Part shown: positions 6,484 to 60,878 of the stretch, in pieces
Numbering within the stretch: the first letter of the stretch is position 1
Layout: each line of letters starts with the position of its first letter
Source: a virus
DNA: 64,000 nucleotides
IMG/VR virus record: IMGVR_UViG_3300045955_000166
Location: 1 to 64,000 of that record
Direction: 5' to 3' (one strand)
The notes under the pieces: model-generated
Seen by the model: only the letters and a program-made list of their open reading frames with translations
What the model was told of the DNA's origin: nothing
The model's database searches: none
Made by a program: the position numbers and the translations under genes

Positions 6484-6523
6484 TTCTATATATATTTGAG
6501 AATTAATTTTTAAAGGAGATAAT

Positions 6524-7239: not shown

Positions 7240-7247
7240 GGATAATT

Positions 7248-11866: not shown

Positions 11867-11879
11867 GGAGATATTTTAC

Positions 11880-12482: not shown

Positions 12483-12487
12483 AAAGA

Positions 12488-12500
12488 TTAAATAATTTAA
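12488..12500. repeat. TTAAATAATTTAA palindrome copy
   Basis: Exact copy abutting the TGGAGGTGG ribosome site of the next gene. Confidence 0.9.
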
Positions 12501-12513
12501 TGGAGGTGGTATT

Positions 12514-13164: not shown

Positions 13165-13165
13165 A

Positions 13166-13810: not shown

Positions 13811-13824
13811 AGAGATATAAGATA

Positions 13825-14409: not shown

Positions 14410-14418
14410 ATAATTTAA
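14406..14418. repeat. TTAAATAATTTAA palindrome copy
   Basis: Exact copy overlapping the stop codon at 14407-14409 and lying directly before GGTAGGAGG. Confidence 0.9.
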
Positions 14419-14436
14419 TAGGTAGGAGGTTTACCA

Positions 14437-14961: not shown

Positions 14962-14962
14962 A

Positions 14963-14975
14963 TTAAATAATTTAA
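14963..14975. repeat. TTAAATAATTTAA palindrome copy
   Basis: Exact copy right after the hub gene stop and before the ribosome site TTAGGAG. Confidence 0.9.
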
Positions 14976-14992
14976 TGTGTTAGGAGTTTTAT

Positions 14993-15643
14993 ATGGCTTT
15001 TTCAGATTGGCAATTTTATAGTGGTGCTGCACGAATAGATTGGTCATTAGATCTTATTGCTCCTATTATGGGAACAAGTTCATTAAAAGCACTATTAAAT
15101 AACTCTGCTGGTGATCAAGCAAATGGTGTTGTAAAGGCTGTAAGTGGACGAACAAAAGGCATTGAGCAAGGACGAATGCGTACACTTATTAAAACAGATA
15201 CAAGTGGAAATGCAAATAGATATGGAATTATATGTTTACAAAGTACAGATAATGTCTCTACAGCAACCCCAAATGGGTATTTTTTAGGGTATACACGAAC
15301 AGTAACTGATTTAATTGTTGCACGATTTACAAGTCAATTGTGGAGTTCATCTGTAGCACTTGCTAGTATTGATGCCGCAGCTTGGGTAATTCAAGGAACT
15401 ACGTTTAGTTTATTAACTGAATGGATTGTTGATACAGCAAATTTAGGTGGAGTGTATTTTGCTATTTCTACAGGAGCAGCTACAGATTTTTCAGATTTAG
15501 CAGTACGATTAAAACATATAGATCCTACTGGATCTGCTCATATTGCCGGAGTAGCAGAAGGATTAGGAGCGAGTTTAATATCTTTTACTGGTGGTGTTCC
15601 TTATACACAATTTGATCAAACAGAATTATATAGTTTACAATAA
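14993..15643 (+). CDS. Virion beta-sandwich protein, family member 4 of 4
   Basis: 216 residues. Shares the family landmarks: FSDWQFYSG start, GRTKGIEQGRMRTLIK, FSLLTEWIVDTANLGG, FAISTGAATDFSDLA and a final FDQTELYSLQ. The middle part has diverged with an insertion rich in Trp and Ala. Strong TTAGGAG ribosome site. Probably another tail-surface binding protein. Confidence 0.65.
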   Translation: MAFSDWQFYSGAARIDWSLDLIAPIMGTSSLKALLNNSAGDQANGVVKAVSGRTKGIEQGRMRTLIKTDTSGNANRYGIICLQSTDNVSTATPNGYFLGYTRTVTDLIVARFTSQLWSSSVALASIDAAAWVIQGTTFSLLTEWIVDTANLGGVYFAISTGAATDFSDLAVRLKHIDPTGSAHIAGVAEGLGASLISFTGGVPYTQFDQTELYSLQ

Positions 15644-15655
15644 GGACGGTAGTTT

Positions 15656-16453
15656 ATGAAAAAACGATGTGGAAAATGTTTACGATATAAATTTTTTAAT
15701 GAATATTGTAAAGATAAACATACTTCATCTGGACTACAATCATATTGTAAACAATGTAAAAATGAATGGCGTACTGGAATGCCATATATTCCAAAAGTAC
15801 GAGTAATTTCTGGTATATATGAATATGCTAATATGTATGAATATCATAAAAAGTATAGACAAATAAATAAAGAAAAATGGATAGCATATCGAAAAAAATG
15901 GTATATAAAAAAAATGCAAGGACATATTTATCAAAGAAGGAGAGGAAAAATTATTCCTCCAAGTAAGGAAGGAATGAGGGTATGTACGATTTGCTATGAA
16001 GAAAAAACTCTTGATGAATTTTTTATTTCTCGTATAGAACCATTAAAATTAGAACATCAATGTAAAATATGTCGCATGAAAATAATGATGGAACTTTATT
16101 GGAATACAACAGTATATAGAAAATATATATCTCCAACTTTGAATACACAAAAAATATGTAGTATGTGTAAAGAAATAAAAAATATAGATGAATTTTATTT
16201 AAGTAGTTTATGGGCAGATGAACATCAATATCAATGTAAAGAATGTCGGTCAGAATATCAACATAAAAAAAGATTTAAAGGAACAAAAAAAGGATTTCCT
16301 AAAAAACATTATACATGTTCAGTATGTTATAGTGAATTTACAAAAGAAAATATTGTTAAATTATTTAATGATGATATAGTATGTTTATCTTGTACTTCTT
16401 TTGATTTAGAAGAATCATTAGAAAAGATAATTGGTAAACCTGTTCTTGTATAA
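15656..16453 (+). CDS. Tandem zinc-ribbon protein without a visible nuclease domain
   Basis: 265 residues containing four CX2C...CX2C modules: C5/C8 with C31/C34, C110/C113 with C136/C139, C168/C171 with C194/C197, C221/C224 with C243/C246. The spacer between pairs is 22, 22, 22 and 18 residues. Each module looks like the zinc unit preceding HNH or endonuclease VII domains (K.C..C......F), but no HNH catalytic residues follow. Basic linkers suggest nucleic-acid binding. It lies among tail genes without structural similarity to them. It may be a decayed or unusual mobile endonuclease, or a DNA/RNA-binding regulator. Confidence 0.72.
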   Translation: MKKRCGKCLRYKFFNEYCKDKHTSSGLQSYCKQCKNEWRTGMPYIPKVRVISGIYEYANMYEYHKKYRQINKEKWIAYRKKWYIKKMQGHIYQRRRGKIIPPSKEGMRVCTICYEEKTLDEFFISRIEPLKLEHQCKICRMKIMMELYWNTTVYRKYISPTLNTQKICSMCKEIKNIDEFYLSSLWADEHQYQCKECRSEYQHKKRFKGTKKGFPKKHYTCSVCYSEFTKENIVKLFNDDIVCLSCTSFDLEESLEKIIGKPVLV

Positions 16454-16461
16454 GGAAATTT

Positions 16462-17169
16462 ATGGGGAAATATAATGGTAATGGATATACGAAATTTGAA
16501 TCACTTCGGGCTTTAACTCAAACTCAAAAGGAATATATCAAAGCCATACATTCTTCAGTTGTTACAATTGCAGTAGGTGCTCCTGGTACTGGTAAAACCT
16601 TCTGTGCTGCTGCATTAGCAAGTCAATACTATTACAAAGGTGATGTAGAACGTATTACTATCATACGTCCTACAGTACCTGCAAGTAGACCAATTGGGTT
16701 TATTCCAGGTGATGCTCAAGAAAAAATGGAACCTTGGGCAACACCAATTTTAGAAGTGTTAGAAGAAAAATTAGGCGCAAAATATTATGATGGCAGGAAT
16801 AATGGAACTATTTATACATATCCTATCATGTATTTACGTGGTTCTACACTTCGTAATTCTTTTATTATTATAGATGATTCGCAAAATTTAACAAAAGAAG
16901 AACTTCATTTAATTCTCACGCGCATAGGTGAAGGAAGTAAAGTTGTTATTACAGGAGATTTATCACAAAGCGATTTGTTTATAGAAAATGGTTTGTCTTT
17001 TGTTATTAAAAAAATACAACAACTTGAATTATCTGTGCCAATTATAACTTTTACTGATGGTGATATTTGTCGAAGTCAAACATGTCAATTATGGCACACT
17101 ATTTTTACATCTGTGGTATTGCAGGAGAGCATATATGAAGAATATAACAACAGTAATGGACTTAAATAA
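16462..17169 (+). CDS. phoH: PhoH-like ATPase
   Basis: 235 residues. Walker A GAPGTGKT at residues 39-46, the PhoH landmark RPTVPASRPIGFIPGDAQEKMEPW near 75-98, Walker B FIIIDDSQN near 138-146 and sensor VVITGDLSQ near 165. PhoH-family ATPases are RNA-binding or RNA-helicase-like proteins frequent in phages, role in infection uncertain. Its placement inside the tail-tip cluster is unusual because phage phoH genes normally lie with metabolic genes. The stop codon overlaps a palindrome copy (17162-17174). Confidence 0.88.
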   Translation: MGKYNGNGYTKFESLRALTQTQKEYIKAIHSSVVTIAVGAPGTGKTFCAAALASQYYYKGDVERITIIRPTVPASRPIGFIPGDAQEKMEPWATPILEVLEEKLGAKYYDGRNNGTIYTYPIMYLRGSTLRNSFIIIDDSQNLTKEELHLILTRIGEGSKVVITGDLSQSDLFIENGLSFVIKKIQQLELSVPIITFTDGDICRSQTCQLWHTIFTSVVLQESIYEEYNNSNGLK

Positions 17170-17665
17170 TTTAATAGATAAGTACATTGGTACGCCTTAT
17201 AGAGAACGTGGAAGTAATGATGGCATGGATTGTTATGAGATAGCACGTACATTATATAATGAAGGTCTTAACTTAAATATGTCAACATTTGCTCCTGATA
17301 ATACAGATAAATTTTTTGAATATTATTGTAAAGATTATGGTTGGGAATTTCCTTGGGAAAAATTACAACAATGGGACATGTTATTAATTCATTCTGTATT
17401 ACATCCTGTAGATCATTGTGGCATAGTATTAAATACAACAGAATTTGTTCATAGTATTTTACCTCCTGGTGTATGTATAGGGAAAATACAACAATATAAA
17501 CATAGAATCTATCAAATTGTTCGGCCAAGAATATTTGGAGAAGAATATGATGATGAAGCACGTGCAATTATTGAAAAATCACGTTCAATAATTTTACGAC
17601 AAGCTACATTTGATCAAGAAGATATATGGAAAGAAAATAATATGAAAGCGAGTGTGTATGAATAA
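17135..17665 (+). CDS. NlpC/P60-type tail-tip peptidase (lambda K-like)
   Basis: 176 residues from ATG 17135 behind CAGGAGAGC, overlapping the PhoH gene. Catalytic Cys33 in NDGMDCYEIA and His94 in VDHCGIVL match NlpC/P60 cysteine peptidases; the YIGTPYRERG lead-in is typical. In lambda-like phages this protein (K) assists tail tip assembly and may cut peptide cross-links of the wall during DNA injection. It immediately precedes the J-like gene, as in lambda. Confidence 0.82.
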   Translation: MKNITTVMDLNNLIDKYIGTPYRERGSNDGMDCYEIARTLYNEGLNLNMSTFAPDNTDKFFEYYCKDYGWEFPWEKLQQWDMLLIHSVLHPVDHCGIVLNTTEFVHSILPPGVCIGKIQQYKHRIYQIVRPRIFGEEYDDEARAIIEKSRSIILRQATFDQEDIWKENNMKASVYE

Positions 17666-20600
17666 AGTTAAAATAATTATGTCACCATTCAAAGGGATGA
17701 ATGGTGAATATCATACACTCGAATATGAGGTAGAGGAAGGGAAATATCTTCATGAGATTTTTCAAGATTGGGATTTAAATGCTGTTAATATTGCAGTTAA
17801 TGGAACATCTATTGAAGAAAAAGCATTATATTTACCTTCTGCAAATTCAGAAATTATTGTATCTGGACAAATAGGTATTCCTTTTCTTATTGTTATTGCT
17901 ATTTCTATCATTATTTCTGTTGTATTAAGTGTTGTAATGATGTTGTTGTTTCCTGTTAAACCACCTAAATTTGAGCCACCAGAAAAAGAAGGATCAAGTT
18001 TTAGTTGGTCTGGTATACAAACAACACAGGGACCTGGAAATGTAGTACCAATTATTTATGGCCGACATAGAGTAGGTGGACAATTATTAACAGCTTATGT
18101 TGAAGAACGAACAAATAATCAAGAGTTCACGATTCAAGATCCTGTTTTAAATATGTTGATATCTGTAGGAGAAGGTGAGATTGAAGAATTTGAAATGGAT
18201 ACCGTAGAAATTAATGATCAACCAATTAGTAACTATCAAGAAATTTCTTTGGATTCACGTTTAGGTACACCAAATCAAACACCTATACCTTTTTTTACGC
18301 AATCAAAGAATACATTTGATCAAGGTAATATAGATTTTTCAGAAAATCCAGTTACGTATACAACATTAGCAGCAATAAATGGATTTATTATCCATGTAGA
18401 TTTTGCTGCGGGATTATATCATATAGATGCTAAATCTGGTGTACGAGCAAATAATACATCGACATGGCAGTACAGATATAGACTTAATGTTGGTCCTGGT
18501 TCATGGTCTGCTCCTCAACGTATTTCGACATCAACAGATCAAAAGAAAACTGTCCATCGTCCTATTAAAGTTGAGAATCTTCCTCTTGCTGTATATGATA
18601 TTGAAATTTCACATGTAAGTGCTACGTTTACTGATGATCAATCAGAATTTAAACCATATTTAACAAAAATATCTGAAATAGTTGATGTAACAGAAGCATT
18701 TCCGAATACGGCTTTATATGGTTTACGAGTTGTTGCAACAGAAAATTTACAAGGTTCATTACCTAATGCTACAGTTATTATTAAAGGAACAAAAGTTAGA
18801 GTAGGATCTTTTTTAAATACCCCTATATATTCAGAAAATCCTTCATGGTGTTTAATGGATTTTATGACAAATGTACGGTATGGTTTAGGTTTACCAGATG
18901 AAGAAATTGATTTGGCTTCTTTTATTGCTTTTGCAAGTTATTGTGATGAATTTGTAGATGTTGATGAAGATCATGATGGAATAGCTGATGCTCAAGAAAA
19001 ACGTGCAATCATTAGTTATGTTATTGATACTGATGCTGATGCACCACAGGTTATTGATGAAATTCTTATGCCGACAAGAGCAGTATTAGTAAAGACTGAG
19101 GGATTATGGAAAGTTAAGATAGCACAAGATAGTGTTCCTGTTCAATTAATTACGTGGGCATCAACAATACGAGATTCTGTTATTTTGACATATATACGAG
19201 ATTCTGAAGCTACGAATGTCTTAGAATGTCGTTTTTCAAATAGTAATGATGATTATGAGCAAGATGTTTTAGTATATCCGAGAGTTGAAGATTGGCCTTA
19301 TCAAGTTAATAAAAGTTCATTAGAATTTCGTTCGGCAGCCCGACCAACACAAATAGAACGAGAAACAGCATTTAATTTAGTTTCAAGACGTTATCAAAAA
19401 CAGGCCATAGAATTTGAAATGAATATTGCAGGAATGATCTTTGAGATTATGGATGTGATTCGTTTTTCACACCCATTGCCTGGATATGGATGGTCTGGTA
19501 GAGTAGTTGAAAATTATGGAGCAACAGTAACAAACACAAGAGAAATAGTCCTTGATTCAGAAGTTCCGTTTGCTCCTGGTGGTATTTATCATGTATTTCT
19601 TCAAAATAAAGATGATGTGCAAAATGTGAGATTGTTAGTAAATCCAGCATCAACACAAACAGTAAATACAAGAGTTCTTCAATTAGATGCAGCAGAACCA
19701 GATCTTACATTTGTACCATCTGAAGGTTATACCCAATGGGCATTTGGTAAAGCAGAACCATTTAATACAGCTTATAAATTGTTTCGTATTACAAAAGTTG
19801 AACGTGCTGGTGATTTTATTATTTCAGTGACAGGGGTTGAACATAATCCAACTATTTTTGATCCATTTACAGCAGAATTATTGCCAAGTCCATCACATTT
19901 AATTAAGCCTGATGGACCACCACCACCTTTGATTCAGTTAGTTGGATTTGAAGAAATTTTCCGCGATGCTACAGGAAACTTAAATAATTTTATTGTTCTT
20001 GAATGGGATGTTATGCAAGTTGAAGAAGCACGTAGAGTAAATCCACGTATAAAATATGGTGTATATGGTGGAGGATTGGTATATAGACGATATGTAGAAG
20101 GAAGTGCTGTAGCAGGATCATTATTAGTAGGTGAATTTCTTGCTGCTGAAGCTGGATCTCAAGATTTTGATAATTTGTCAGGTTTTAATTTAGTAGGATC
20201 TGTCACAGGACAATATGCTTTTCAATATAAAGAATTAGCTCCACCTGTAGGTACGATTATTCAATATAGGGTTGTACCTATTTCGGTACGTGGTACTCCA
20301 AATTATGATGGACTTCTTCAAGTAGAAATTACTGTCACAAATATTGATGTGACTCCTCCTGCTGCTTCAGTAGGTTTAGTGGCTGAAGGTGGTATTAGAG
20401 CTATTGAACTTTCATGGTCTAATCCTACTGTGTTAGATTTTGATGGGGTAGAAATTTGGGCATCTAAAATAAATAATAGAGCAGCAGCAACAAAGGTTGG
20501 TTCAGTATTTAATGGTGGAGTAACGTTTTCACATACAGGTTTAGGAAATTTAGAAACATGGTACTATTGGATACGTTCATTTGATTATGCAGGCAACTTT

Positions 20601-40657: not shown

Positions 40658-41206
40658 ATGCTCATTGAAGAAATCTGGCAAGACATACTTGGGTTTGTGG
40701 GATTCTACCAGATAAGTAATTATGGTAGAGCCAAGAGCTTAGAAAGATGTGATAGTAAAGGTAGGCAATTAAAAGAAAAAATATTGAAGCCTAAAATAGA
40801 TAGGAATGGGTATTTTTATGTTAGATTATCTAAAAATGGTAAATGGAAAAATTTTAGTATATCTCGTTTAGTGGCTTTACATTTTATTCCAAATCCAGAA
40901 AATAAAAAGGAAGTAAATCATTTTGATGGCAATAAATCTAATAACCATGAATTAAATTTACAATGGTGTACAAGATCTGAAAATTGTTTACATGCTTATA
41001 AATTCAGATTAAAAGATTATAAAGAAGAAAATAATCCAAATTCAAAATTAAATTGGGGTCAAGTAAATATAATACGGGCAATGTTAAATGAAAAAAATGA
41101 AAAAGGTACAAAGAAATATACCCAAAAAAACATTGCTGACATTTTTAATGTATCGTCACATTTAATTCAGAAAATTAAATTAAATAAAATATGGAAATAC
41201 ACCTAA
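40658..41206 (+). CDS. NUMOD4/HNH homing-type endonuclease
   Basis: 182 residues. NUMOD4 start EIWQDILGFVGFYQISNYGR, HNH core VNHFDGNKSNNHELNLQWCT followed by RSENCLHAYK, and a C-terminal helix-turn-helix (QKNIADIFNVSSHLIQKIK) for site recognition. Clear paralogue of the gene at 48568. Unlike the other endonuclease genes it has its own promoter. Confidence 0.92.
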   Translation: MLIEEIWQDILGFVGFYQISNYGRAKSLERCDSKGRQLKEKILKPKIDRNGYFYVRLSKNGKWKNFSISRLVALHFIPNPENKKEVNHFDGNKSNNHELNLQWCTRSENCLHAYKFRLKDYKEENNPNSKLNWGQVNIIRAMLNEKNEKGTKKYTQKNIADIFNVSSHLIQKIKLNKIWKYT

Positions 41207-42012: not shown

Positions 42013-43392
42013 GTGTCAGGTGTCTGTACATTAGCACAGATAACAGAAATTGAAAAACACCCTAATGCTGATAGATTACAGGTTGCTACAGTATTAGGAG
42101 AGAAAGTTATTGTAGGACTTGATGCAAAGATAGGGAACTACGTATTATATTTTGATTGTGATTGTCAACTCTCACAAGAATTTTGTGATGCAAATGATTT
42201 AATTGCGCGATATGACACTACAGGAATAAAAATAGGTGGTGGATATTTTGATACAAAAAGACGTGTACGAGCACAAAGTTTTCGTGGTATAAAATCTAAT
42301 GGATTTGTGTGTCCATTAAATTATTTAAGTTATTGCAAGGGTGATGAAATACTACAAACAGCACAAGTAGGATATCAGTTTATTTCCATTAATGGTTCTG
42401 AAATTTGTAGTCGATATATTGTACCAGTAAGACAACATTCTATATCCGGTAAACAAAAAGCTATACGTAAGGCACAAGTACCTACATTTTTAGAACATGT
42501 AGACACAGATCATATACGATATCATTTAAGTCAGATGCTTGTTCCAGGTGACAGGATCTACGTTACTGCAAAAGTCCATGGTACAAGTGGTAGACTCCAT
42601 AGAGGCATCAATCGTACACCATATGCAAATAAATGGTTAAATCGTATCTCATGGATGTTTAAACCACGATATGAACATTGGGTAGGTTCTCGGAGAGTCA
42701 TTAAAGGAACCACAGAAGCCCATCAGAATAGGCGTTTTTTGGGTTACAAGTTGCCCTTCCTTGCATTATTTTTCTCAGGTAGGGGTAACACAAGGGGTTA
42801 CTATTCTGATGAATCTTTTCGTTTTGATGATGTGCAAAATATAAAACTTCATAAAGGAGAAACAATCTATTATGAACATGTAGGTTTTATAACTGCCTAT
42901 CAACCTATTATGCCTGGAGTAGACTTAAAAAAATTGCCCAAGGATATACAAAAACAATATAAACCAAATACTGATGAACCAGATAAGTTACATTTTAAAT
43001 ATGGTTGTTTTCCGTATCAACGTAAATTACTTGTGTATAGAATTACCTGGACAAATGAAGATGGTGAAGTGTATGAATTACCATGGTCTTTGATAAAGAA
43101 AAGATGTGGTGAACTCCAATTAGATCATGTTGTAGATATTGCATCCTTACATATGAGCGATTATATACGAGTAGGAGATTTACCTTTTGTTCAATTATTA
43201 GCTACGTATACAGAACGTCCAGATCCTTTAGATAGTTCTCATTATATGGAAGGTGTAGTTTTTCGAGTAGAACGAGAAAACGGTTCTACATATTTCTGGA
43301 AGTATAAATCTCATACCTTTCTTGTTGGAGAAGGTTTAGTAAAAGATTCAGGACAAGTAGATATAGAAGAACAACAATCTCAAGGAACATAA
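42013..43392 (+). CDS. RNA ligase, Rnl5/DraRnl-like
   Basis: 459 residues from GTG 42013 behind AGGAGATATA. The N-terminal domain (about 1-120) has ITEIEKHPNADRLQVATVLG, a tRNA-binding/OB-like element that marks the Deinococcus-type ligases. The nucleotidyltransferase domain has motif I AKVHGTSGR (Lys187 as adenylation site), motif III IYYEHVGF, motif IV MEGVVFRV and motif V FWKYK. It would seal broken RNA, for example tRNAs cut by host defence. A kinase partner candidate lies at 60363. Confidence 0.85.
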   Translation: MSGVCTLAQITEIEKHPNADRLQVATVLGEKVIVGLDAKIGNYVLYFDCDCQLSQEFCDANDLIARYDTTGIKIGGGYFDTKRRVRAQSFRGIKSNGFVCPLNYLSYCKGDEILQTAQVGYQFISINGSEICSRYIVPVRQHSISGKQKAIRKAQVPTFLEHVDTDHIRYHLSQMLVPGDRIYVTAKVHGTSGRLHRGINRTPYANKWLNRISWMFKPRYEHWVGSRRVIKGTTEAHQNRRFLGYKLPFLALFFSGRGNTRGYYSDESFRFDDVQNIKLHKGETIYYEHVGFITAYQPIMPGVDLKKLPKDIQKQYKPNTDEPDKLHFKYGCFPYQRKLLVYRITWTNEDGEVYELPWSLIKKRCGELQLDHVVDIASLHMSDYIRVGDLPFVQLLATYTERPDPLDSSHYMEGVVFRVERENGSTYFWKYKSHTFLVGEGLVKDSGQVDIEEQQSQGT

Positions 43393-48567: not shown

Positions 48568-49098
48568 ATGTCTGTAAGTAAAAAAGAAATATGGAAAGAT
48601 ATTATTGGATATGAGAATTATTATCAAATAAGTAATTATGGAAATGTAAAAAGTTTAGAACGTTCTTTTCATTTAGGAGGAATAAGAAAAGAAAAAATTT
48701 TAAAATTCAGTATAAATACAAGTGGATATTTTCAGGTTACATTACAAAAAAATGGAGAAAAGAAAAATTATCTTGTACACAAATTAGTAGCATTGCATTT
48801 TATACCTAATCCAGATAATAAATCTGAAATAAACCATAAAGACGGAAACAAATTAAATAATTTAATTAATAATTTAGAATGGTGTACAAGATCTGAAAAT
48901 GCTTTACATGCTTTTCAATTAGGTTTAAGAAATAATAAAGAAGAAAAAAGTCCAAATAGGAAATTAAATATTCAACAAGTTTTTGAAATACGAGAATTAT
49001 TAAATAAAAAAATTCCACATAAAATAATTGCAGAAAAATATAAAGTTAGTCATCATTGTATAGCTAATATAAATACAAAACGTACATGGAAATTTTAG
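48568..49098 (+). CDS. NUMOD4/HNH homing-type endonuclease
   Basis: 176 residues. KEIWKDIIGYENYYQISNYG (NUMOD4), INHKDGNKLNNLINNLEWCT (HNH), RSENALHAFQLG and a terminal helix-turn-helix HKIIAEKYKVSHHCIANINT. Paralogue of the 40658 gene, about as related as expected for a duplicated mobile element. A palindrome copy lies within it (48853, reading KLNNLI). Confidence 0.92.
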   Translation: MSVSKKEIWKDIIGYENYYQISNYGNVKSLERSFHLGGIRKEKILKFSINTSGYFQVTLQKNGEKKNYLVHKLVALHFIPNPDNKSEINHKDGNKLNNLINNLEWCTRSENALHAFQLGLRNNKEEKSPNRKLNIQQVFEIRELLNKKIPHKIIAEKYKVSHHCIANINTKRTWKF

Positions 49099-50598: not shown

Positions 50599-50683
50599 TT
50601 GTATTGTCTATGTAGTATTTGGTTGTATAGTTACTGGCATGATTTGTTTATTTATGTGGTATTATTTCAGGAGGAATAAATGA
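50567..50683 (+). CDS. Small single-span membrane protein
   Basis: 38 residues from ATG 50567: MKSMMEVFVINCIVYVVFGC and onward to WYYFRRNK. One membrane span with a basic C-terminus. Overlaps the previous gene and, by ATGA, the kinase gene; its own coding end (AGGAGG) supplies the ribosome site of the kinase. This arrangement resembles overlapping spanin pairs, but no lipobox is present. Confidence 0.5.
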   Translation: MKSMMEVFVINCIVYVVFGCIVTGMICLFMWYYFRRNK

Positions 50684-51270
50684 GAATAGGGTTAATGGGT
50701 GTATCTGCATGTGGTAAAACAACATTAGCATTATATTTGACACACAATAAAATAGTTGATGTGTCATTTTTACCAAGTTGTGCAAGAAAAATTGCAGCAG
50801 AACATGGTTTTCAATCAAATGAAGATTTTATGAATGCATCAGTGGGTGATGTATATGCATGTCAAGATCGTATGTTTACGTATAGAATGGAGCAAGAACA
50901 ATATTTAAAAGAATTTGTATCAGATCGAACTTTACTTGATATTTTTATTCACACAATATTTCGTTGTCCATCAATGGTATCAGAATTTATGTATAAAACA
51001 TACCAACGACAAGTATATACATCATTAAAAACATATGATTATTTATTTTATTTAGAATCTCCACCTATTATAAAAGATGATGATCCACTTCGTATTACAG
51101 ATCAATCAATTATTTATGTACTGCAAATATTATATTATGACTATATAATTATGTTTAATAATAAAGCGGTACAAGGTAAAAACAAACCCATATATTATCT
51201 ACCATGGGACACCTTAGAAAATCGTGTAGAAAAAGTACAAGCGATACTAGGAGATCAAGAGGAAAAGTAA
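50680..51270 (+). CDS. P-loop nucleoside/nucleotide kinase-like protein (AAA_28)
   Basis: 196 residues. Walker A GVSACGKT at 7-14, then ARKIAAEHGF, DRTLLDIFIHTIF (DR acidic pair typical of NadR/thymidylate-kinase-like folds) and YLFYLESPPI. The AAA_28 family includes small-molecule kinases. AGGAGG precedes ATG. It opens the cluster with the PPDK-like and phosphatase-like genes, so it may belong to the same pathway. Confidence 0.7.
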   Translation: MRIGLMGVSACGKTTLALYLTHNKIVDVSFLPSCARKIAAEHGFQSNEDFMNASVGDVYACQDRMFTYRMEQEQYLKEFVSDRTLLDIFIHTIFRCPSMVSEFMYKTYQRQVYTSLKTYDYLFYLESPPIIKDDDPLRITDQSIIYVLQILYYDYIIMFNNKAVQGKNKPIYYLPWDTLENRVEKVQAILGDQEEK

Positions 51271-51271
51271 C

Positions 51272-53089
51272 ATGTTAAAAACTCGTTTTTTCTATAAAAG
51301 TACGGATGAAAAATATAAAGAATTACCAGAACAAATCCATAAAGAAGTCTATGGAAATAAGGCAACAAATCTTTTTGGATTAAAGTCTATAGAGGATATC
51401 AATGTTCCTTTCTTTGTTGTTTTGCCGACAAATTTTTGCCGACTCTATAGAAAAGATAAAGTACAAGCAGAATTAAGACTTGTTGATGTTATTAAACAAG
51501 TCTTAGTACCACAATTTGGAAAAAAATTAGTATCTGTCAGATCTGGTGCTCCGTATTCTATGCCTGGACTTATGAGTACCATTCTTAATGTTGGATTAAC
51601 AGTACAGAATTTTAAAGAATGGATGGAAAAATTAGGACAAGAAGCAGCATTTAATTCTCTTTTCCGTTTTCGGAAAATGTTTGGTGAGACAGTTTTAGGA
51701 TTGACATTACATAGTACCTATGTATTTAATGATCCTGTACAATCATTAAAAAATATAAAAGCCGAATATGAAGCACTTCAACAAAAAACTCCAGAGATGT
51801 TAGATCTAGGGAGTCAATTATTTTATGCTATAAAAGCTATATGGGAAAGTTGGGATTCTCCAGAAGCAGAAGCCTATAGAAAATTTAATCATTTAAAAGA
51901 TGTAGGTACAGGTGTAATTATTCAAGAAATGGTGTTTGGCAACACCTTCAGAGGTTCTACAGGTGTCATGTTTTCTTCTAATCTTGAAACAGGTGCAGAT
52001 AGAATACAAGGAGAGTACATTTTTAATGCTCAAGGAGAAGATATTGTTTCAGGCCATGAGACACCTTTAAATATTGATACACTTTTAGAAACAGGATTTG
52101 AAGCATTATATAAACTTCTTGAAAAAAATGCCAAAAAAATAGAAAACCATTACAAATATCCACAAGATATTGAATGGACATTATATAATAAAAGATTGTA
52201 TTTCTTACAAACACGTGATGCAAAAATTCCATCAAGTACAAAAATAACAATGTTGTATGAAAACCTTATTCTCCAAAAGAATCATATTCCATTAAAGCAT
52301 TTAACTCTCCAAGATTTTATGTTAGATGTAAACAAACTCAGTATATCAAAAGATACACCATTTTTTAATGGTAAAAGTGCATGTAATGGTGTAGCTATTG
52401 GGACATTAACATTTGATATAGACAAATGTACAGAGAACTCTATCTACTGTACAGAATATACCACAACAGAAATGATTCCTGCTCTCTTAAAATGTAAAGG
52501 AATTATTGCTCTTACAGGTGGTATAACATCTCATGCAGCAGTATTAGCAAGAAGTTTACAAAAGCCATGTTTATTAAATTTAGAAGCAGAATATAATGCC
52601 GAAAAAAATACATTGAGTACAAATGATTTATGTTTACTTGAAGGTGACACAATTTCTTTAGATAGTACCAATGGAAAATTATATAAAGGAAAAGGGAAAA
52701 TTGTAAAAGATACTGTATTATTAAAAAAAATAGATTCAATATGGACATTTATTTTTTCGTATTTCAAAGATCCATTAGTAATAACAAATCCATATATACC
52801 ATTAGAAATGATAGGGAAAAATGTTTTATTAGATCCTTCATGGTTTATGTTTCCTTATGAAGAATTTTGTAAAAAAATAAAACCATTACAAAAAACGATA
52901 CGGACATATTATGTTCATAGATCAAATAATATTCATCCATATTATTTAAAATTTGTTAATGAAGAAATTGTTGACAAACACTTAGAGAACTATTATAATT
53001 TATTAGGAGCACATGATATTACACATGTAGAAAAAGGAATATTTACTCATGAAGAATTATTACGGGCAATGATAGCAACAATAATTTAA
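51272..53089 (+). CDS. PPDK/PEP-synthase-like phosphotransferase lacking the TIM barrel
   Basis: 605 residues. ATP-grasp domain (about 1-330): KLVSVRSGAPYSMPGLMSTI at 85-104, a typical PPDK signature, and IEWTLYNKRLYFLQTRD at about 295-315. The swivelling phosphohistidine domain (about 360-470) has LTGGITSHAAVLARSLQKPC, His about 421. The C-terminal 125 residues are not the PEP/pyruvate TIM barrel of PPDK (which needs about 350) but an unknown helical domain. It should move a phosphate from ATP through His to an unidentified acceptor, as in rifampin phosphotransferase-like enzymes. Confidence 0.8.
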   Translation: MLKTRFFYKSTDEKYKELPEQIHKEVYGNKATNLFGLKSIEDINVPFFVVLPTNFCRLYRKDKVQAELRLVDVIKQVLVPQFGKKLVSVRSGAPYSMPGLMSTILNVGLTVQNFKEWMEKLGQEAAFNSLFRFRKMFGETVLGLTLHSTYVFNDPVQSLKNIKAEYEALQQKTPEMLDLGSQLFYAIKAIWESWDSPEAEAYRKFNHLKDVGTGVIIQEMVFGNTFRGSTGVMFSSNLETGADRIQGEYIFNAQGEDIVSGHETPLNIDTLLETGFEALYKLLEKNAKKIENHYKYPQDIEWTLYNKRLYFLQTRDAKIPSSTKITMLYENLILQKNHIPLKHLTLQDFMLDVNKLSISKDTPFFNGKSACNGVAIGTLTFDIDKCTENSIYCTEYTTTEMIPALLKCKGIIALTGGITSHAAVLARSLQKPCLLNLEAEYNAEKNTLSTNDLCLLEGDTISLDSTNGKLYKGKGKIVKDTVLLKKIDSIWTFIFSYFKDPLVITNPYIPLEMIGKNVLLDPSWFMFPYEEFCKKIKPLQKTIRTYYVHRSNNIHPYYLKFVNEEIVDKHLENYYNLLGAHDITHVEKGIFTHEELLRAMIATII

Positions 53090-53103
53090 TAAAGGAATAA
53101 TAT

Positions 53104-53415
53104 ATGTCTCATACATTTGGAACACTAGGTATCTGTTTACCTGTTAATGATTCTTTTTTCGTAGGAGATGTAAAATTTACTGTAACAGAGATACGACATA
53201 ATTGGGTGAAAAAGCACTATACATGTGCTTTAACATATGCTGCTCAAGAAAAAGAAGGAGTTATAATACTCAAACAAAATCATGAGTTACCATTTTATAG
53301 TGAGTTACTGTCACCTGTATTTATGTGGATAGGCAAAAGAACAACTTCTTCTATTGCACACGTGTTCATTAGCGCATATAAGAACGTTCCCATTAGGAGA
53401 GAGAATTATGTTTAA
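53104..53415 (+). CDS. Hypothetical protein
   Basis: 103 residues. Mostly beta (CLPVNDSFFVGDVKFTVTEI, YTCALTYAAQEKEGVIILKQ) with a positively charged end. Lies between the PPDK-like and the first phosphatase-like gene and overlaps the latter by 8 bp. Not recognised. Confidence 0.55.
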   Translation: MSHTFGTLGICLPVNDSFFVGDVKFTVTEIRHNWVKKHYTCALTYAAQEKEGVIILKQNHELPFYSELLSPVFMWIGKRTTSSIAHVFISAYKNVPIRRENYV

Positions 53416-53914
53416 CCTGATTAAATTCTTTAATGGTTTCTTTCATCGCCCAACACAAGAACCAATATATACAGAAGAAATCAAATGTGTTCCTTCATTT
53501 GATAATCTTCATTTATTTTCATCGAAAGGGATTATTATTGATGCTCCAGATCCTTACGTTATTATTGCTGGACCTTTTTATAAAAAGCCGAGTAACATAA
53601 GAGGATTATGTTTAGATGAAGAATTTTATACAATAAATAATGCAACAAATGATTGGTTATTTCCTATACCAGATTTTCAAGTACCAAAAGATAAGAGTGC
53701 TTTTAGACAGATTTTGGTAGACGTGTATCGTCATGCCAAAAAAGAAAAGATTGTTTATATAGGATGTAAAGGAGGATTTGGAAGAACAGGTATGGCTATT
53801 GCGTGTTTACTCAAGATGCATGGCAGTAAAAATCCTGTAAAAGAAGTTAGATTATTATATGATAAAAGAGCGGTTGAAACACCAGAACAAGAATCGTTTG
53901 TAACGAGATTTTAA
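53408..53914 (+). CDS. Dual-specificity/tyrosine phosphatase-like protein 1
   Basis: 168 residues from ATG 53408 behind AGGAGAGAG. Signature P-loop VYIGCKGGFGRTGMAIA: C120-X5-R126. The general acid candidate Asp89 lies in FPIPDFQVP (83-93). This is the cysteine phosphatase core of PTP/DSP or inositol phosphatases. Phage versions act on unknown phosphoproteins or small molecules. The related gene at 54845 flanks the same 312-residue protein. Confidence 0.78.
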   Translation: MFNLIKFFNGFFHRPTQEPIYTEEIKCVPSFDNLHLFSSKGIIIDAPDPYVIIAGPFYKKPSNIRGLCLDEEFYTINNATNDWLFPIPDFQVPKDKSAFRQILVDVYRHAKKEKIVYIGCKGGFGRTGMAIACLLKMHGSKNPVKEVRLLYDKRAVETPEQESFVTRF

Positions 53915-53925
53915 GGAAACAAATC

Positions 53926-54864
53926 ATGCCAATTATAGACTTGTATGTATCACCTGTACGCAAACCCTTCATGTACCCTGTTCTGGCAGAACGTTTATAT
54001 GATTGGTATGATTTGTATAGTAAACATAAACGTTCTCCAGAAGCAGATATGTTTGCTTTTTATTATCTCAATCAATCTGTAAATGCTCTTGAAGGGTTAT
54101 ATGGGTTATATGGAAATCTCCAAGAAAAACAAGTTATTGTAGATGACTATATTACAACGACACTTGATGTAGCAGAGCATATTGTTGTGTATCTTCTTTT
54201 TATATGTTTACGAGAAACACGACATGCATATAATAAAAATCCTAATTTTAAACATTGGGCAAATTTACCAGAAAATAAAGAGACAGCAGCAGTAGTAATG
54301 TCTTTACGAAATACGGGACCTTTAAAAAGTATAGAGCAAGCTGTAAAATTTCTCCAAAAATCACAGTTGTCATTATGTACAATGCTTGAATCAATTTCTA
54401 AGTTATTTGTGTCAGGATGTTTTGGAATGTCATGTGGTGGAAAAAATTGGAAAGTTATTACAGATTTTACCTTAGATTATTTCAAAGGAAAACTCACAAC
54501 AGAAATGTTTGTTGATTTGTGTTTTAACTTAGAGCACAATACCTCTGATATTTTTAATAAAGGCATTGTATTTACTGATAGTAGACCGTTTTTTAAGGCA
54601 TTATTGGACATACAACATGAAGGAAAATTACCTGTTCTTATAAAATATGCCGAGAACATATTTAAAAATTTAAATCAAAAAAAGGTTTATGAAGCTCTTG
54701 TAGAATATGAAACAATATTTCCGTTAGCTTCAGAGAATGAAGAATATCATTTGTTGAAGTACAACATACTTAAAGAGTTTATTTCCATTAATACAAGTCA
54801 TAAAACGGTATTTCTCAAATTTCCTATAGCAAACGAGGTTTTCATTGAGAAAAGAAAAATGTAA
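53926..54864 (+). CDS. Unknown 312-residue protein between two phosphatase genes
   Basis: 312 residues, mainly helical. Starts PIIDLYVSPVRKPFMYPVLA; other segments include FYYLNQSVNALEGLYGLYGN, LFVSGCFGMSCGGKNWKVIT and LEHNTSDIFNKG. No nucleotide or metal motif identified. A His/Asn/Glu-containing stretch could be catalytic. It overlaps the second phosphatase gene, strongly suggesting a shared task. Confidence 0.65.
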   Translation: MPIIDLYVSPVRKPFMYPVLAERLYDWYDLYSKHKRSPEADMFAFYYLNQSVNALEGLYGLYGNLQEKQVIVDDYITTTLDVAEHIVVYLLFICLRETRHAYNKNPNFKHWANLPENKETAAVVMSLRNTGPLKSIEQAVKFLQKSQLSLCTMLESISKLFVSGCFGMSCGGKNWKVITDFTLDYFKGKLTTEMFVDLCFNLEHNTSDIFNKGIVFTDSRPFFKALLDIQHEGKLPVLIKYAENIFKNLNQKKVYEALVEYETIFPLASENEEYHLLKYNILKEFISINTSHKTVFLKFPIANEVFIEKRKM

Positions 54865-55336
54865 ACATCCAGTTCTTATGATAAATGATACTTCGGTATA
54901 TGGTGGTTCTATTTTTGATATACCGAAAAATGTTGCAGATCATTATTTTCTTTTAGATGGAGGTATTAAAACCAGTAATACCTCCTATGTTACCGTACAT
55001 CATATACCAAATTGGGGAGTACCAAAGGATATCCATTCATTCAATCAATGTTTAGAAAAAGCTGCAATATTTGTCAATGAAGGATGTCCTATATTTGTTG
55101 GATGTTTAGGTGGACATGGGAGAACAGGATTATTTTTATCTATTCTTTTATTTCAGTTGACAAAAGACAGGTTGAGTTTGTATAATTTAAGAGAACAATA
55201 TTGCTACAAAGCCGTAGAGACAACTACACAATATAAATTTCTCATGGACTATGGTTTAGAAATTTATGCATTAGATTATAAGCGAGTAAAAGAAAAAGAA
55301 GAACAACGGAGAACATATGGAAAAAAGCCCACATAA
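54845..55336 (+). CDS. Dual-specificity/tyrosine phosphatase-like protein 2
   Basis: 163 residues from TTG 54845 (GAGG upstream), 20 bp inside the previous gene. P-loop VGCLGGHGRTGLFLSI: C87-X5-R93. The candidate acid region IPNWGVPKD (54-62) has no Asp at the position seen in the first phosphatase, so chemistry may differ. Sequence similarity to the 53408 protein is limited to the core, indicating an old duplication or separate acquisition. Confidence 0.76.
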   Translation: MRKEKCKHPVLMINDTSVYGGSIFDIPKNVADHYFLLDGGIKTSNTSYVTVHHIPNWGVPKDIHSFNQCLEKAAIFVNEGCPIFVGCLGGHGRTGLFLSILLFQLTKDRLSLYNLREQYCYKAVETTTQYKFLMDYGLEIYALDYKRVKEKEEQRRTYGKKPT

Positions 55337-55655
55337 AATGTATGATATTGTTTTAGGAAAGACTGGATCAAAATATATACTTATCGCTCAAAGTGCAGAA
55401 TTAGATATCACAGTACGTATAACACCTGTGAATGTTACTTTTCATGCATATATACATGATACAGAAAATGAAAATATTAAAAAATATATAGAAAAATTGG
55501 GATTTAATTATAATATTCAATATTGGTCAGGACGATTTATGGTAGGAACAAAATTAAATAAATTAATTGTTATCGGAGGTATTTTATATGCATTGACAGA
55601 TGTTGTACAATGGACAACTCCTTGGCCTGATTCAAAGTTATTATTTAGTGTATAA
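55317..55655 (+). CDS. Hypothetical protein
   Basis: 112 residues overlapping the phosphatase gene by 20 bp. Strand-rich with IVLGKTGSKYILIAQSAELD and IVIGGILYALTDVVQWTTPW. Not recognised; precedes the polymerase. Confidence 0.5.
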   Translation: MEKSPHKMYDIVLGKTGSKYILIAQSAELDITVRITPVNVTFHAYIHDTENENIKKYIEKLGFNYNIQYWSGRFMVGTKLNKLIVIGGILYALTDVVQWTTPWPDSKLLFSV

Positions 55656-55665
55656 GGGTTAGATT

Positions 55666-57924
55666 ATGTTTACTATATGGGGTTCTTCATTAGAAGGGTA
55701 TTTATCATTCTTTAAAGGATTTGATTATCAGTTATATGATAAAGGTTCAGTACCTACTGATGGTTTGATATTGGCATTAGGAAATCCAGCTTTACAAGTC
55801 CTAAAAGATGAAGGATTGATTGCCAAGAATAGAACACTTGCATCATTACAAGATGATATTTATGCATATGAGAATGCCTTTATATTGCCTACATATCATC
55901 CAGAGGAAATAGAAGAAGATTATACAAAAAACTTCGATTTGATATGGCGACTAAAACAAATAGCTCGGTATGAAACAACAGGAACTTTTAATGTTGAATT
56001 ACCGCCTATGTCATGGGTATCAGATCTTCAAGAATTATATAAACATGCTAGTCAAAACAAATGGGTAGCATTTGATATAGAGACACAAGGTTCAGATCCT
56101 TTTAATGCAAACAACTATATCATTTGTTTCACATTTTCCTCTGGAGAATATTCGTGTGGAGTGTACATTAACGGTCAATTACCAAAGAAAATTCATGAAC
56201 AATTAACGTTCATATTAAATAATTTACTTTGGAAAGTAGAAGGTGCAAATCTCAAGTATGATTTGTTATGGTTAAAAGTAAAATATGGAATCACGTGTAT
56301 AAATTTTGCATGTGATACGACACTTATAGGTTCATTACTTGATGAAAATAGATCGAATAGTCTCACATTACATTCTCGTATTTTTACTCCATGGGGAGGA
56401 TATGATAGTCAACTCAATAAAAAATATGATAAGAATAATATGGCAGAAGTGCCAATAGAGGAATTAGGTCCTTATGCTATAGGTGATGCCATAGCAGAAT
56501 ACAAAGTAGGTGAAATATTTCGGCAACAATTAAAAGAAGAAGAACTTAAAATACGTAAAGTTCATAGGAGAGTTGGTCCCATGAACTTTTATCAAAAGCT
56601 ACTCCATCCTATTGCCCGTACTTTTGAAGATATAGAGTACAGAGGTATTCATGTTGATCTCGAATATCTAAATGCTTTAGAAATGGAAGTTGCATATGAA
56701 ATATCTGAAGTGTCACAGAAAGCATTACAATTAATACCAAAATCTCTCCAAAGAAAATATGCAGATAACTTGAGTATTACACGTGCTTCTTTGTTACAAG
56801 ATTATCTGTTTACTCCTGAAGGATTAAATTTAGAACCATTTGTTGTAACACCAAAATCAAATAAACCATCTACGTCATATAAAGATCATTTATATCAATT
56901 TAAAACACATCCAAAAGCAGGTAAATTTATTGAGTATCTTAAACGATATAGTGAATTGAATAAGATACTTAGTACCTATATTGTAGGATTCAAAACCCAT
57001 ATACGAGAAGATGGTAAATTCCATCCATCAGTCATATTACATAGGGGAAGTTTTGAAGATGGGAGTAGGGGAGGTACAGTTACAGGTAGGATAGGATGGA
57101 AAAATCCTCCATTAATGGTGCTACCTTCGCATACAATAGATGCAGAACGTATACGAAAAATGTTTGTTGCTCCACCTGGATATATGATTGTAGGAGCAGA
57201 TTTGAGTCAAGCAGAGTTACGATTGGTAGCCCATTTATCGAAAGATCCAGTAATGATGCAAGCATTCAAAGAAGGAAAAGATCTCCATAAGGTTACAGCA
57301 TATAATACACTCGGAATTACTGAACAACAATTTTTTAATTTACCAATAGATAAACAGAAACATTATAGACAAGTAGCGAAGTCACAAAATTTTGGCCTTG
57401 TTTATGTTATGGGGTTTAGGGGGTTGCAAGTTTATGCAGAGAAATCCTATGGAGTAGCATTCTCATTAGATGATGCTCAGAAATACTATAATTCGTTTCA
57501 TGCAACATATAAGAATATTAAACCATGGCATAAGAAATGTATCTCCCATGCCTATGAACATGGGTATATGGTGTCATTATTAGGACGTATACGACATCTC
57601 CCACAGATCTATTCTTCTATTGATAAGATAAGACAACAAGCAGAAAGAAGATCAACGAATGCTCCTGTACAAGCAGATGCAAGTGATTTGAATTTGTTGG
57701 CAGTATTAGAAATCAGTAAAGATCCTAACGTTCAAGTATGGGGTACGATTCATGATAGTATTTATGCCTATGCACCAGAGCATATAGCTATTGAATGTGC
57801 TCAAAAATTAAAATGGACTATGGAGAATTTGCCAACAGAGCAATTTGGATGTTCGTTGAGTGTACCTCTTGTGGCCGATGTTAAAGTGGGTTACAATCTT
57901 TCTGAAATGGAAGAAATAAAATAA
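55666..57924 (+). CDS. polA: DNA polymerase I-type (family A) with UDG-like N-terminal domain
   Basis: 752 residues. The N-terminal segment (about 30-105; LALGNPALQVL, ILPTYHPEEI, then a C-terminal helix) resembles the uracil-DNA glycosylase fold present at the front of several phage polymerases. The exonuclease domain has WVAFDIETQ at 133-141. Polymerase motifs: TGRIGWKNPPL, IVGADLSQAELR (motif A), RQVAKSQNFGLVYV (motif B) and WGTIHDSIYAY (motif C). A 5-prime nuclease domain is absent. This is the main replicative polymerase. Seen in the polymerase gene is a degenerate palindrome (56214). Confidence 0.92.
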   Translation: MFTIWGSSLEGYLSFFKGFDYQLYDKGSVPTDGLILALGNPALQVLKDEGLIAKNRTLASLQDDIYAYENAFILPTYHPEEIEEDYTKNFDLIWRLKQIARYETTGTFNVELPPMSWVSDLQELYKHASQNKWVAFDIETQGSDPFNANNYIICFTFSSGEYSCGVYINGQLPKKIHEQLTFILNNLLWKVEGANLKYDLLWLKVKYGITCINFACDTTLIGSLLDENRSNSLTLHSRIFTPWGGYDSQLNKKYDKNNMAEVPIEELGPYAIGDAIAEYKVGEIFRQQLKEEELKIRKVHRRVGPMNFYQKLLHPIARTFEDIEYRGIHVDLEYLNALEMEVAYEISEVSQKALQLIPKSLQRKYADNLSITRASLLQDYLFTPEGLNLEPFVVTPKSNKPSTSYKDHLYQFKTHPKAGKFIEYLKRYSELNKILSTYIVGFKTHIREDGKFHPSVILHRGSFEDGSRGGTVTGRIGWKNPPLMVLPSHTIDAERIRKMFVAPPGYMIVGADLSQAELRLVAHLSKDPVMMQAFKEGKDLHKVTAYNTLGITEQQFFNLPIDKQKHYRQVAKSQNFGLVYVMGFRGLQVYAEKSYGVAFSLDDAQKYYNSFHATYKNIKPWHKKCISHAYEHGYMVSLLGRIRHLPQIYSSIDKIRQQAERRSTNAPVQADASDLNLLAVLEISKDPNVQVWGTIHDSIYAYAPEHIAIECAQKLKWTMENLPTEQFGCSLSVPLVADVKVGYNLSEMEEIK

Positions 57925-60187: not shown

Positions 60188-60366
60188 TGACATTAGATGA
60201 AATAATCCAACGATTAAAGATTGTTGAAACAGAAATACAAGAACTTCATAATGCACTTATGACATTAAGTGTGTTAGTGCATAGATTAGAAGGACGAATA
60301 AATACAGTAGCTGCTGTAGGTTCTGTTATTACTCCTCCAAACATTAGGTACAAGGTACAATCATGA
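60187..60366 (+). CDS. Small coiled-coil protein
   Basis: 59 residues from ATG 60187. Heptad-like DEIIQRLKIVETEIQELHNA continuing to VLVHRLEGRI, then a short tail. It overlaps the previous stop and the next start (ATGA). Confidence 0.5.
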   Translation: MTLDEIIQRLKIVETEIQELHNALMTLSVLVHRLEGRINTVAAVGSVITPPNIRYKVQS

Positions 60367-60878
60367 ATCCAGTATGTGTGATGTTAATGGGTATTCCTGG
60401 TTCTGGTAAGACACGATTGGCATTAAACATACAAAAAAAATGGTCAGAGAAAAATTATCATATTTTAAGTACAGATGATATCTTTACAGAATTAGGAAAA
60501 TCCCATGGATGGTCTTATAATGATGCATTCAATAGGATTCCATTTCAAACTGTTGAAGATATATTTTATGATAGATATATAGAATATGTTGCCGATAGAA
60601 AAAACATCATTATTGATCAAACAAATGTTACACGATATGCACGACAGAAAAAATTAAATTATTTAACTTCTGATTATATCAGAGTTGGTATCTATGTTGA
60701 TACTCCTCTACAAGAGATTCGTAGACGATTAGAGTTACGTTTTGAAGAAACAGGAAAAGATATTCCCGAAGAAAATATAAAAAATATGATTTCAAAATTT
60801 CAAGTACCTACGTTGGCTGAATTTGATAATCTTTTTTTCACAAGTAAATTAACAAAGCTGAAAGATTTATTTGCATGA
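60363..60878 (+). CDS. Polynucleotide kinase-like P-loop protein (AAA_33)
   Basis: 171 residues. Walker A GIPGSGKT at 10-17, STDDIFTELGK acid pair near 38-48, IIIDQTNVTRYARQKKL and IYVDTPLQEIRRRLELR match the kinase part of T4 Pnkp-type and zeta-like kinases (DQTN and the R..R lid). No 3-prime phosphatase domain is attached. It could rephosphorylate 5-prime ends for the RNA ligase at 42013. Contains a palindrome copy (60654). Confidence 0.75.
   Translation: MNPVCVMLMGIPGSGKTRLALNIQKKWSEKNYHILSTDDIFTELGKSHGWSYNDAFNRIPFQTVEDIFYDRYIEYVADRKNIIIDQTNVTRYARQKKLNYLTSDYIRVGIYVDTPLQEIRRRLELRFEETGKDIPEENIKNMISKFQVPTLAEFDNLFFTSKLTKLKDLFA

What the first reader, a model, noticed from the sequence alone, without database searches (positions are those of the whole stretch)
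50680..55336. Phosphotransfer cassette: kinase-like, truncated PPDK-like, two CX5R phosphatases flanking an unknown protein
The 51272 protein has an ATP-grasp domain and a swivelling phospho-His domain but no PEP/pyruvate TIM barrel; its last 125 residues are a different domain. Next to it are a P-loop kinase-like gene and two phosphatase genes that flank, and in one case overlap, a 312-residue protein of unknown family. Known precedent: rifampin phosphotransferase uses ATP-grasp plus phospho-His without PEP synthesis. A phage-encoded phosphorylation and dephosphorylation cycle on an unknown target (metabolite, host protein or the 312-residue protein) would be new.
Basis: partly seen in the sequence, partly recalled or inferred. 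Interest (0 to 1): 0.78.

Follow-up and report, generated by a model that had tools for sequence, protein, structure and literature searches.

The report
Phage split phosphohistidine dikinase with phosphatases
This phage carries a widely conserved gene block in which an enzyme usually filed as a pyruvate/PEP enzyme has lost its pyruvate site and is tied, in some phages as one fused protein, to a new helical protein family and to phosphatases, so it probably adds and removes a phosphate on something not yet known.

Summary
The 51272 protein keeps every ATP-grasp and phosphohistidine residue tested. It has no Pfam PEP-utilizers_C (pyruvate/PEP) domain, and neither do the seven genomes tested; 14/14 control genomes do. 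Homology to true PPDK stops at PPDK residue ~530, where the barrel begins. In long relatives the tail is a compact, sequence-eroded beta/alpha barrel; in the window it is shorter still.

The cassette is real and syntenic: PPDK-like, CsrA-like, PTP1, X (the 312-aa protein), PTP2, Y, DNA polymerase A. This exact order occurs in 65 of 104 distinct loci; most others are cut by contig ends or lack one gene. Hosts include Vibrio, Stenotrophomonas, Rhizobium and Rhodobacter. The P-loop kinase is not part of it.

Key result: in two phage contigs (56% identical proteins) the ATP-grasp and phospho-His domains are fused directly to X, which replaces the barrel, with PTP2 next door. A third contig has a free phospho-His domain beside X and PTP2. 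X is all-helical, has no PDB structural match, and has near-invariant E, R, H, D, H, N and K residues.

Best reading: a split dikinase whose acceptor module is X, reversed by CX5R phosphatases. The final substrate is unknown.

The parts
51272..53089 (+). PPDK-like phosphohistidine enzyme, 605 aa: ATP-grasp (aa ~20-320), swivelling phospho-His domain (aa ~365-470, His421), short eroded C-terminal region (aa ~462-605) instead of the PEP/pyruvate barrel
   Evidence: Pfam PPDK_N and PEP-utilizers; homology to PPDK ends at PPDK residue ~530; catalytic residues invariant in up to 96 sequences; no PEP-utilizers_C in the genome
53104..53415 (+). CsrA-like small protein (103 aa), conserved second gene of the block
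   Evidence: family profile finds the window copy at 5e-20; Pfam CsrA PF02599 hits 4 of 12 family members, best 1.7e-7; the window copy alone has no Pfam hit
53408..53914 (+). PTP1, CX5R dual-specificity-like phosphatase (start ATG 53408 preferred over TTG 53354)
   Evidence: Pfam PTP-SAK 3e-11; C138 and R144 in 88/88, general acid D107 in 87/88, numbered from 53354; Shine-Dalgarno AGGAGAGAG before 53408
53926..54864 (+). X, 312-aa all-helical protein (phrog_20946), proposed acceptor module of the dikinase
   Evidence: E97, R99, H100, W175, D197, H204, N205, K212 invariant or nearly so in 95 sequences; AlphaFold model all-alpha, pTM 0.80; no PDB fold match; found fused to PPDK-like in L119 and L170
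54845..55336 (+). PTP2, CX5R phosphatase; window copy has Asn56 at the general-acid position
   Evidence: Y_phosphatase 3e-7; C87 86/86, R93 85/86, Asp 80/86 and Asn 6/86; TTG start with upstream GAGG; the one phosphatase kept next to the fused enzyme
55317..55655 (+). Y, short copy of the family called 'transporter' or 'pyruvate decarboxylase' in vibriophages; last gene before PolA
   Evidence: profile built without the window finds it at 6e-24
55666..57924 (+). DNA polymerase A, constant right-hand neighbour of the block
   Evidence: Pfam DNA_pol_A 6.5e-66; same position in 65 exact-order loci
50680..51270 (+). P-loop kinase-like protein, NOT part of the conserved block
   Evidence: found only in the window and its 77% relatives

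Best explanation
The block encodes a split phosphohistidine dikinase and its reversal. Step 1 (inferred from invariant residues): the ATP-grasp domain phosphorylates His421 of the swivelling domain, giving AMP plus Pi or PPi. Step 2 (inferred from gene fusion): the phospho-His arm swings not to a PEP/pyruvate barrel but to protein X. X takes the phosphate on a bound substrate or on one of its own residues, using its conserved Glu/Arg/His/Asp/His/Asn/Lys set. Step 3 (inferred from gene neighbourhood): the CX5R phosphatases PTP1 and PTP2 remove that phosphate. The CsrA-like protein and Y are accessory. The eroded barrel left on most PPDK-like copies is at most a docking platform. The end substrate is not known. 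Candidates in order: a nucleotide or DNA base (the block abuts DNA polymerase A, and DLP3 and DLP5 have heavily modified DNA), a protein, a glycan.
For: (1) Two contigs carry ATP-grasp + phospho-His + X in one uninterrupted ORF of 780 and 782 aa, with X in the barrel's place. PPDK profile aa 12-498 at 3e-155 and X at 9e-20 in L119; 56% identity between the two; PTP2 is the next gene in both. X's E, R, H, D, HN, K motif residues are kept in the fusion. (2) A third contig has a free 108-aa phospho-His domain just upstream of X and PTP2. (3) Strict synteny: 65 of 104 distinct loci have PPDK-csr-PTP1-X-PTP2-Y-PolA, all on one strand. (4) Every ATP-grasp and phospho-His residue tested is invariant where aligned, apart from D299 (E in two sequences) and S420 (C in some), while the C-terminal region has no invariant residue, so catalysis is kept but not at a barrel site. 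(5) PEP-utilizers_C is absent from seven whole genomes with the block; 14/14 controls ring. (6) X-PPDK distance correlation is the highest pair in the block, 0.72. (7) PTP Cys and Arg are invariant or nearly so.
Against: X also occurs without any PPDK-like gene in the sequence at hand: X+PTP2 in L071-L075 and L082, and X domains inside large proteins in L076, L085, L172, L176, L182 and a 595-kb huge phage. X must then use another phosphate source or do something else there. Fusion and synteny show partnership, not phosphotransfer to X. No activity, complex or substrate is shown. Many neighbours of PolA in phages are unrelated to it. Vibrio SIO-2-type phages lack PTP2 and a few contigs lack PTP1, so the two phosphatases are not both essential. 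The window's PTP2 lacks the usual general acid.
Confidence: 0.6

Rival explanations
1. Auxiliary metabolic gene: a working pyruvate phosphate dikinase that interconverts pyruvate and PEP for the host, as published for vibriophages.
For: PMC12038007 models the J26 homologue with a PEP/pyruvate barrel at residues 524-691 and docks PEP there. Long relatives are indeed predicted to have a compact barrel. NCBIfam pyru_phos_dikin hits the N-terminal half.
Against: Homology ends at the barrel boundary. The whole genomes lack PEP-utilizers_C. Most PEP-pocket residues named in that paper change even among its close relatives. The barrel region has no invariant residue and is 113-246 aa long. Two relatives replace it with X. 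Strict linkage to phosphatases and X is unexplained.
Confidence: 0.06
2. The block builds a modified nucleotide or DNA base. The phospho-His enzyme plus X phosphorylates a base or nucleotide as an activated intermediate, the phosphatases trim it, and PolA copies or incorporates it. (A special case of the best explanation with a named target.)
For: The block abuts PolA in nearly all loci. dCTP deaminase or dUTPase lies upstream in several. DLP5 DNA is cut by only 4 of 36 restriction enzymes (PMC5834331) and DLP3 by 0 of 15 (PMC7326821).
Against: DLP5 also carries sugar and glycosyl genes that could explain its modified DNA. No digestion data for the vibriophages were found in the papers read. 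X has no similarity to any nucleotide enzyme.
Confidence: 0.25
3. Protein phosphorylation: X itself, or a host protein it recruits, is the phosphorylated target, and the PTP-type phosphatases reset it (a phage-encoded phosphorelay switch for host takeover).
For: CX5R phosphatases of this kind are close to archaeal and bacterial protein-tyrosine phosphatases. X has an invariant His at the end of a helix (H100, H204) that could accept phosphate. The CsrA-like neighbour suggests regulation.
Against: The window PTP2 lacks the general acid. CX5R enzymes act poorly on phospho-His (general knowledge). X's dense conserved set looks more like a substrate pocket than one accepting residue.
Confidence: 0.2
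4. Glycan cycle like plant GWD/PWD plus SEX4/LSF2: a dikinase without a pyruvate barrel phosphorylates a polysaccharide and PTP-type phosphatases with different positional preference remove it.
For: The same combination of enzyme types: a PPDK-like dikinase with an essential phospho-His and DSP phosphatases SEX4 and LSF2 (PMC12892837). The free phospho-His domain of L234 gives a weak GWD1_pHisD hit, 0.0011.
Against: No carbohydrate-binding module or glycan enzyme in the block. X is unlike any such domain. Linkage to PolA is not explained.
Confidence: 0.08
5. ATP-driven switch: the ATP-grasp/phospho-His pair only cycles ATP to AMP and moves a domain, and X is a structural partner (packaging, replication) with no phosphotransfer.
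For: The C-terminal acceptor region is eroded. X exists alone in large proteins without dikinase.
Against: X keeps invariant charged residues in 95 sequences including the fusions. Phosphatases are retained next to the minimal fused form.
Confidence: 0.1

Closest known systems
Pyruvate phosphate dikinase (TIGR01828; 1KBL, 5JVJ)
   Same: ATP-grasp domain with the active-site Lys, Arg, Asp/Glu, Gln and Arg positions, swivelling domain with TxHAA phospho-His, same domain order
   Different: homology stops before the PEP/pyruvate barrel; no PEP-utilizers_C; barrel eroded, shortened or replaced by X
Barrel-less 'pyruvate, phosphate dikinase' NF004531 (PRK05878, 534 positions)
   Same: ATP-grasp and phospho-His without a full barrel; 219.8 bits over aa 21-474
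   Different: scores below the family cut-off of 456; no X or phosphatase partner known to me
Rifampin phosphotransferase (NF041857)
   Same: dikinase chemistry on a non-pyruvate acceptor (general knowledge; weak hit 4.7e-9)
   Different: different domain order (phospho-His domain last), dedicated rifampin domain, no phosphatases or X
Glucan water dikinase with SEX4/LSF2 phosphatases
   Same: dikinase lacking the pyruvate barrel paired with CX5R dual-specificity phosphatases (PMC12892837)
   Different: plant enzymes, carbohydrate-binding modules, no X, no gene block
phrog_18609, phrog_17568, phrog_20946
   Same: the phage families that hold the PPDK-like, PTP and X proteins
   Different: annotated one by one as kinase, 'thymidylate synthase' (wrong) and unknown; not described as one system
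CsrA family (PF02599)
   Same: the small second gene is a divergent member
   Different: often carries an extra C-terminal part; function not tested

Membership tests
Pyruvate phosphate dikinase | ATP-grasp nucleotide domain with catalytic Arg/Glu/Gln/Arg | tested here: met
   PPDK_N 2.8e-32; R90, E301, Q313, R315 invariant
Pyruvate phosphate dikinase | phospho-His in TxHAA on the swivelling domain | tested here: met
   PEP-utilizers 2.3e-14; H421 in all 95 aligned
Pyruvate phosphate dikinase | C-terminal PEP/pyruvate TIM barrel with its active-site residues | tested here: not met
   no PF02896 in own genome or six others, controls 14/14; profile homology ends at ~530; no invariant residue in the C-terminal region
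Pyruvate phosphate dikinase | scores over the curated equivalog cut-off | tested here: not met
   281.5 bits against 843.45
Pyruvate phosphate dikinase | pyruvate + ATP + Pi to PEP activity | not testable with these tools
   needs enzyme assay
Rifampin phosphotransferase | ATP-grasp, rifampin domain, C-terminal phospho-His domain | tested here: not met
   phospho-His domain lies in the middle; 35.2 bits against cut-off 999
Glucan water dikinase system | dikinase without pyruvate barrel plus CX5R phosphatase | tested here: met
Glucan water dikinase system | carbohydrate-binding modules and glucan substrate | tested here: not met
   no such domain in any block protein; substrate itself not testable here
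CX5R (PTP/DSP) phosphatase | Cys-X5-Arg P-loop and general-acid Asp loop | tested here: met
   PTP1 fully met; PTP2 P-loop met, acid Asp in 80/86 but Asn in the window
CsrA | CsrA Pfam profile match | tested here: inconclusive
   4 of 12 family members match, best 1.7e-7; window copy only through the family profile
Split dikinase with X (proposed here) | X physically linked to ATP-grasp/phospho-His in natural fusions | tested here: met
   L119 and L170
Split dikinase with X (proposed here) | phosphoryl transfer from His421 to X or its substrate | not testable with these tools
   needs biochemistry

The most novel reading that the evidence does not exclude
A new class of phosphohistidine dikinase in which a previously unknown all-helical family (X) replaces the pyruvate barrel as phosphoryl acceptor module, run as a reversible cycle with PTP-type phosphatases, and used by a large phage lineage to make a phosphorylated intermediate, possibly on DNA or its nucleotides, that no known pathway contains.
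Probability: 0.3. Interest if true: 0.88.

Novelty: new variant of a known kind. Interest (0 to 1): 0.72.

Why it matters
Several phage papers read here treat this gene on its own as a pyruvate/PEP metabolic gene, or its neighbours as a tyrosine phosphatase, thymidylate synthase, transporter or pyruvate decarboxylase. The evidence here says these are parts of one conserved system that very probably does not make PEP. It gives a testable partner (X), a minimal two-protein form (fused enzyme plus one phosphatase) that is easy to assay, and a possible route to the unexplained modified DNA of phages such as DLP3 and DLP5. It also warns that 'auxiliary metabolic gene' calls based on half a protein can mislead.

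Tried and rejected
P-loop kinase as part of the system: rejected, only in the window clade. X as a known fold or family: no Pfam (scattered single weak hits DUF7222, DUF2992), no PDB sequence, no PDB fold at E<=0.001, and in BFVD only four convincing hits, taken as family members. phrog_17568 'thymidylate synthase' label: rejected, the proteins are CX5R phosphatases. X or PTP2 on plasmids: no X; one weak M. jannaschii PTP. Listeria and Enterococcus 'phage' hits with the enzyme: the one opened (Enterococcus, L014) encodes a full-length PPDK on an unverified contig; not the system. Searches for papers on dikinase and DNA hypermodification: none. DNA-modification target: kept only as a rival, because DLP5 has other candidate modification genes.
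Full report
Observation. The 605-aa protein at 51272 has two Pfam domains, PPDK_N and the PEP-utilizers mobile (phospho-His) domain. It has no PEP/pyruvate domain, and neither has any other gene of the 69,467-bp record. Both flanking genes are CX5R phosphatases. The 312-aa protein (X) has no Pfam, NCBIfam or PDB match and belongs to phrog_20946, function unknown.

Conservation. tblastn found the enzyme in 55 phage records and X in 40, mostly vibriophages plus Stenotrophomonas, Rhizobium and Rhodobacter phages. The annotated neighbourhoods show the same order. Profile searches of IMG/VR and GTDB contigs gave many more. Over 104 distinct loci, 65 have exactly PPDK-like, CsrA-like, PTP1, X, PTP2, Y, PolA, always on one strand. 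Most of the rest are cut by a contig end or miss one gene. Six lack only PTP2 (SIO-2 type Vibrio phages).

The P-loop kinase at 50680 is found only in the window and its 77%-identical relatives and is not part of the block.

The enzyme. All ATP-grasp and phospho-His positions checked, including R90, E301, Q313, R315, T419 and H421, are conserved in every aligned sequence, apart from D299 (E in two) and S420 (C in some). Profile alignment to full-length PPDK stops at PPDK residue ~530, the boundary of the PEP/pyruvate barrel. The region after it is 113-246 aa long and has no invariant residue. In a 231-aa example it folds in silico with high confidence (pLDDT 91) into an alternating beta/alpha structure whose Foldseek hits are mainly TIM barrels, none at E<=0.001. 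So most relatives keep an eroded, shrunken barrel, and the window copy is shorter still.

A 2025 paper on phage J26 calls the protein a PPDK with a PEP-binding barrel (PMC12038007). Most of the PEP-pocket residues it names are not conserved even among close relatives, while the phospho-His is.

The decisive finding. In contig IMGVR 3300044262_000032 (L119) the 780-aa enzyme runs straight from the phospho-His domain into X, with no barrel; PPDK profile aa 12-498 at 3e-155, X at 9e-20. A second contig (L170) has the same fusion at 56% identity. In both, PTP2 is the next gene and the only phosphatase of this kind found in the record. A third contig (L234) has a free 108-aa phospho-His domain just upstream of X and PTP2. 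X therefore stands where the acceptor domain stands in PPDK. The distance correlation between X and the enzyme (0.72) is the highest in the block; this fits co-inheritance but does not prove contact.

X. AlphaFold gives an all-helical model (pLDDT 79.7, pTM 0.80) with no PDB fold match and only four convincing viral matches, which I take as family members. Across 95 sequences D197, H204 and N205 are invariant, and E97, R99, H100, W175 and K212 are conserved in every sequence that covers them. The fusions keep these residues (for L119; the L170 sequence shows the same motifs). Such a set looks like a catalytic or phosphate-binding site; that is inference.

How it most likely works. Shown by sequence: intact ATP-grasp and phospho-His machinery, intact phosphatase P-loops, linkage and fusion to X, loss of the pyruvate site. 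Inferred: autophosphorylation of His421, transfer to X or its ligand, removal by PTP1/PTP2. Unknown: the final target. Enzyme types combined in this way have a functional precedent in plants, where glucan water dikinase is paired with SEX4/LSF2 phosphatases (PMC12892837). That is an analogy, not membership. A nucleotide or DNA target is attractive because of PolA next door and the restriction-resistant DNA of DLP3 and DLP5, but DLP5 has other candidate genes.

Limits. X also occurs without a dikinase, including in a 595-kb huge phage, so X cannot depend on this enzyme everywhere. Many contigs are fragments. No biochemistry exists. Novelty was checked only in the open-access library; no paper found there describes the block as one system.

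Noticed in passing
L010/L165 (DLP5) record 90207-90995 and DLP3 gp141; phrog_17568: The second phosphatase of the block is annotated 'thymidylate synthase ThyX' in GenBank and its PHROG is named thymidylate synthase; it is a CX5R phosphatase.
   Followed up: yes
L018 (J26) ORF102, and 'transporter' in LV6, R21Y, V-YDF132: Gene Y is annotated as pyruvate decarboxylase or transporter in different vibriophages; the same family is a 112-aa protein in the window.
   Followed up: partly
L168 (LR756511.1, 595-kb huge phage) 14404-19412 of the locus: Two tandem large proteins (about 950 and 694 aa) carry X domains with no dikinase or related phosphatase found in the genome; the larger has a weak SPT5 KOW-like hit.
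   Followed up: partly
L085 (Uhrbacteria MAG) 1174-8798: Two tandem giant proteins (1217 and 1322 aa) with a C-terminal X domain.
   Followed up: partly
L082 (Woesearchaeota MAG) 7227-14083: X with a zinc-ribbon-like tail and PTP2 with a zinc-finger-like N-terminus, followed by an AAA ATPase and a DUF2201 metallopeptidase-like protein.
   Followed up: partly
window 40658-41206 and 48568-49098: Two related HNH homing-endonuclease-like ORFs, one just before the dCTP deaminase-like gene.
   Followed up: no
window 42013-43392 and 60363-60878: RNA ligase-like and polynucleotide-kinase-like genes, possibly an RNA repair pair.
   Followed up: no
L013 (Bacillus phage G gp139): A 365-aa PPDK-like protein with a shortened ATP-grasp region and no C-terminal domain, next to an FtsZ-like gene.
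   Followed up: no
OR846604 (Enterococcus phage Efs 1-1-1; similar hits in Listeria phage LM contigs): Unverified 'phage' contig encodes a complete 881-aa PPDK and is probably bacterial contamination.
   Followed up: partly
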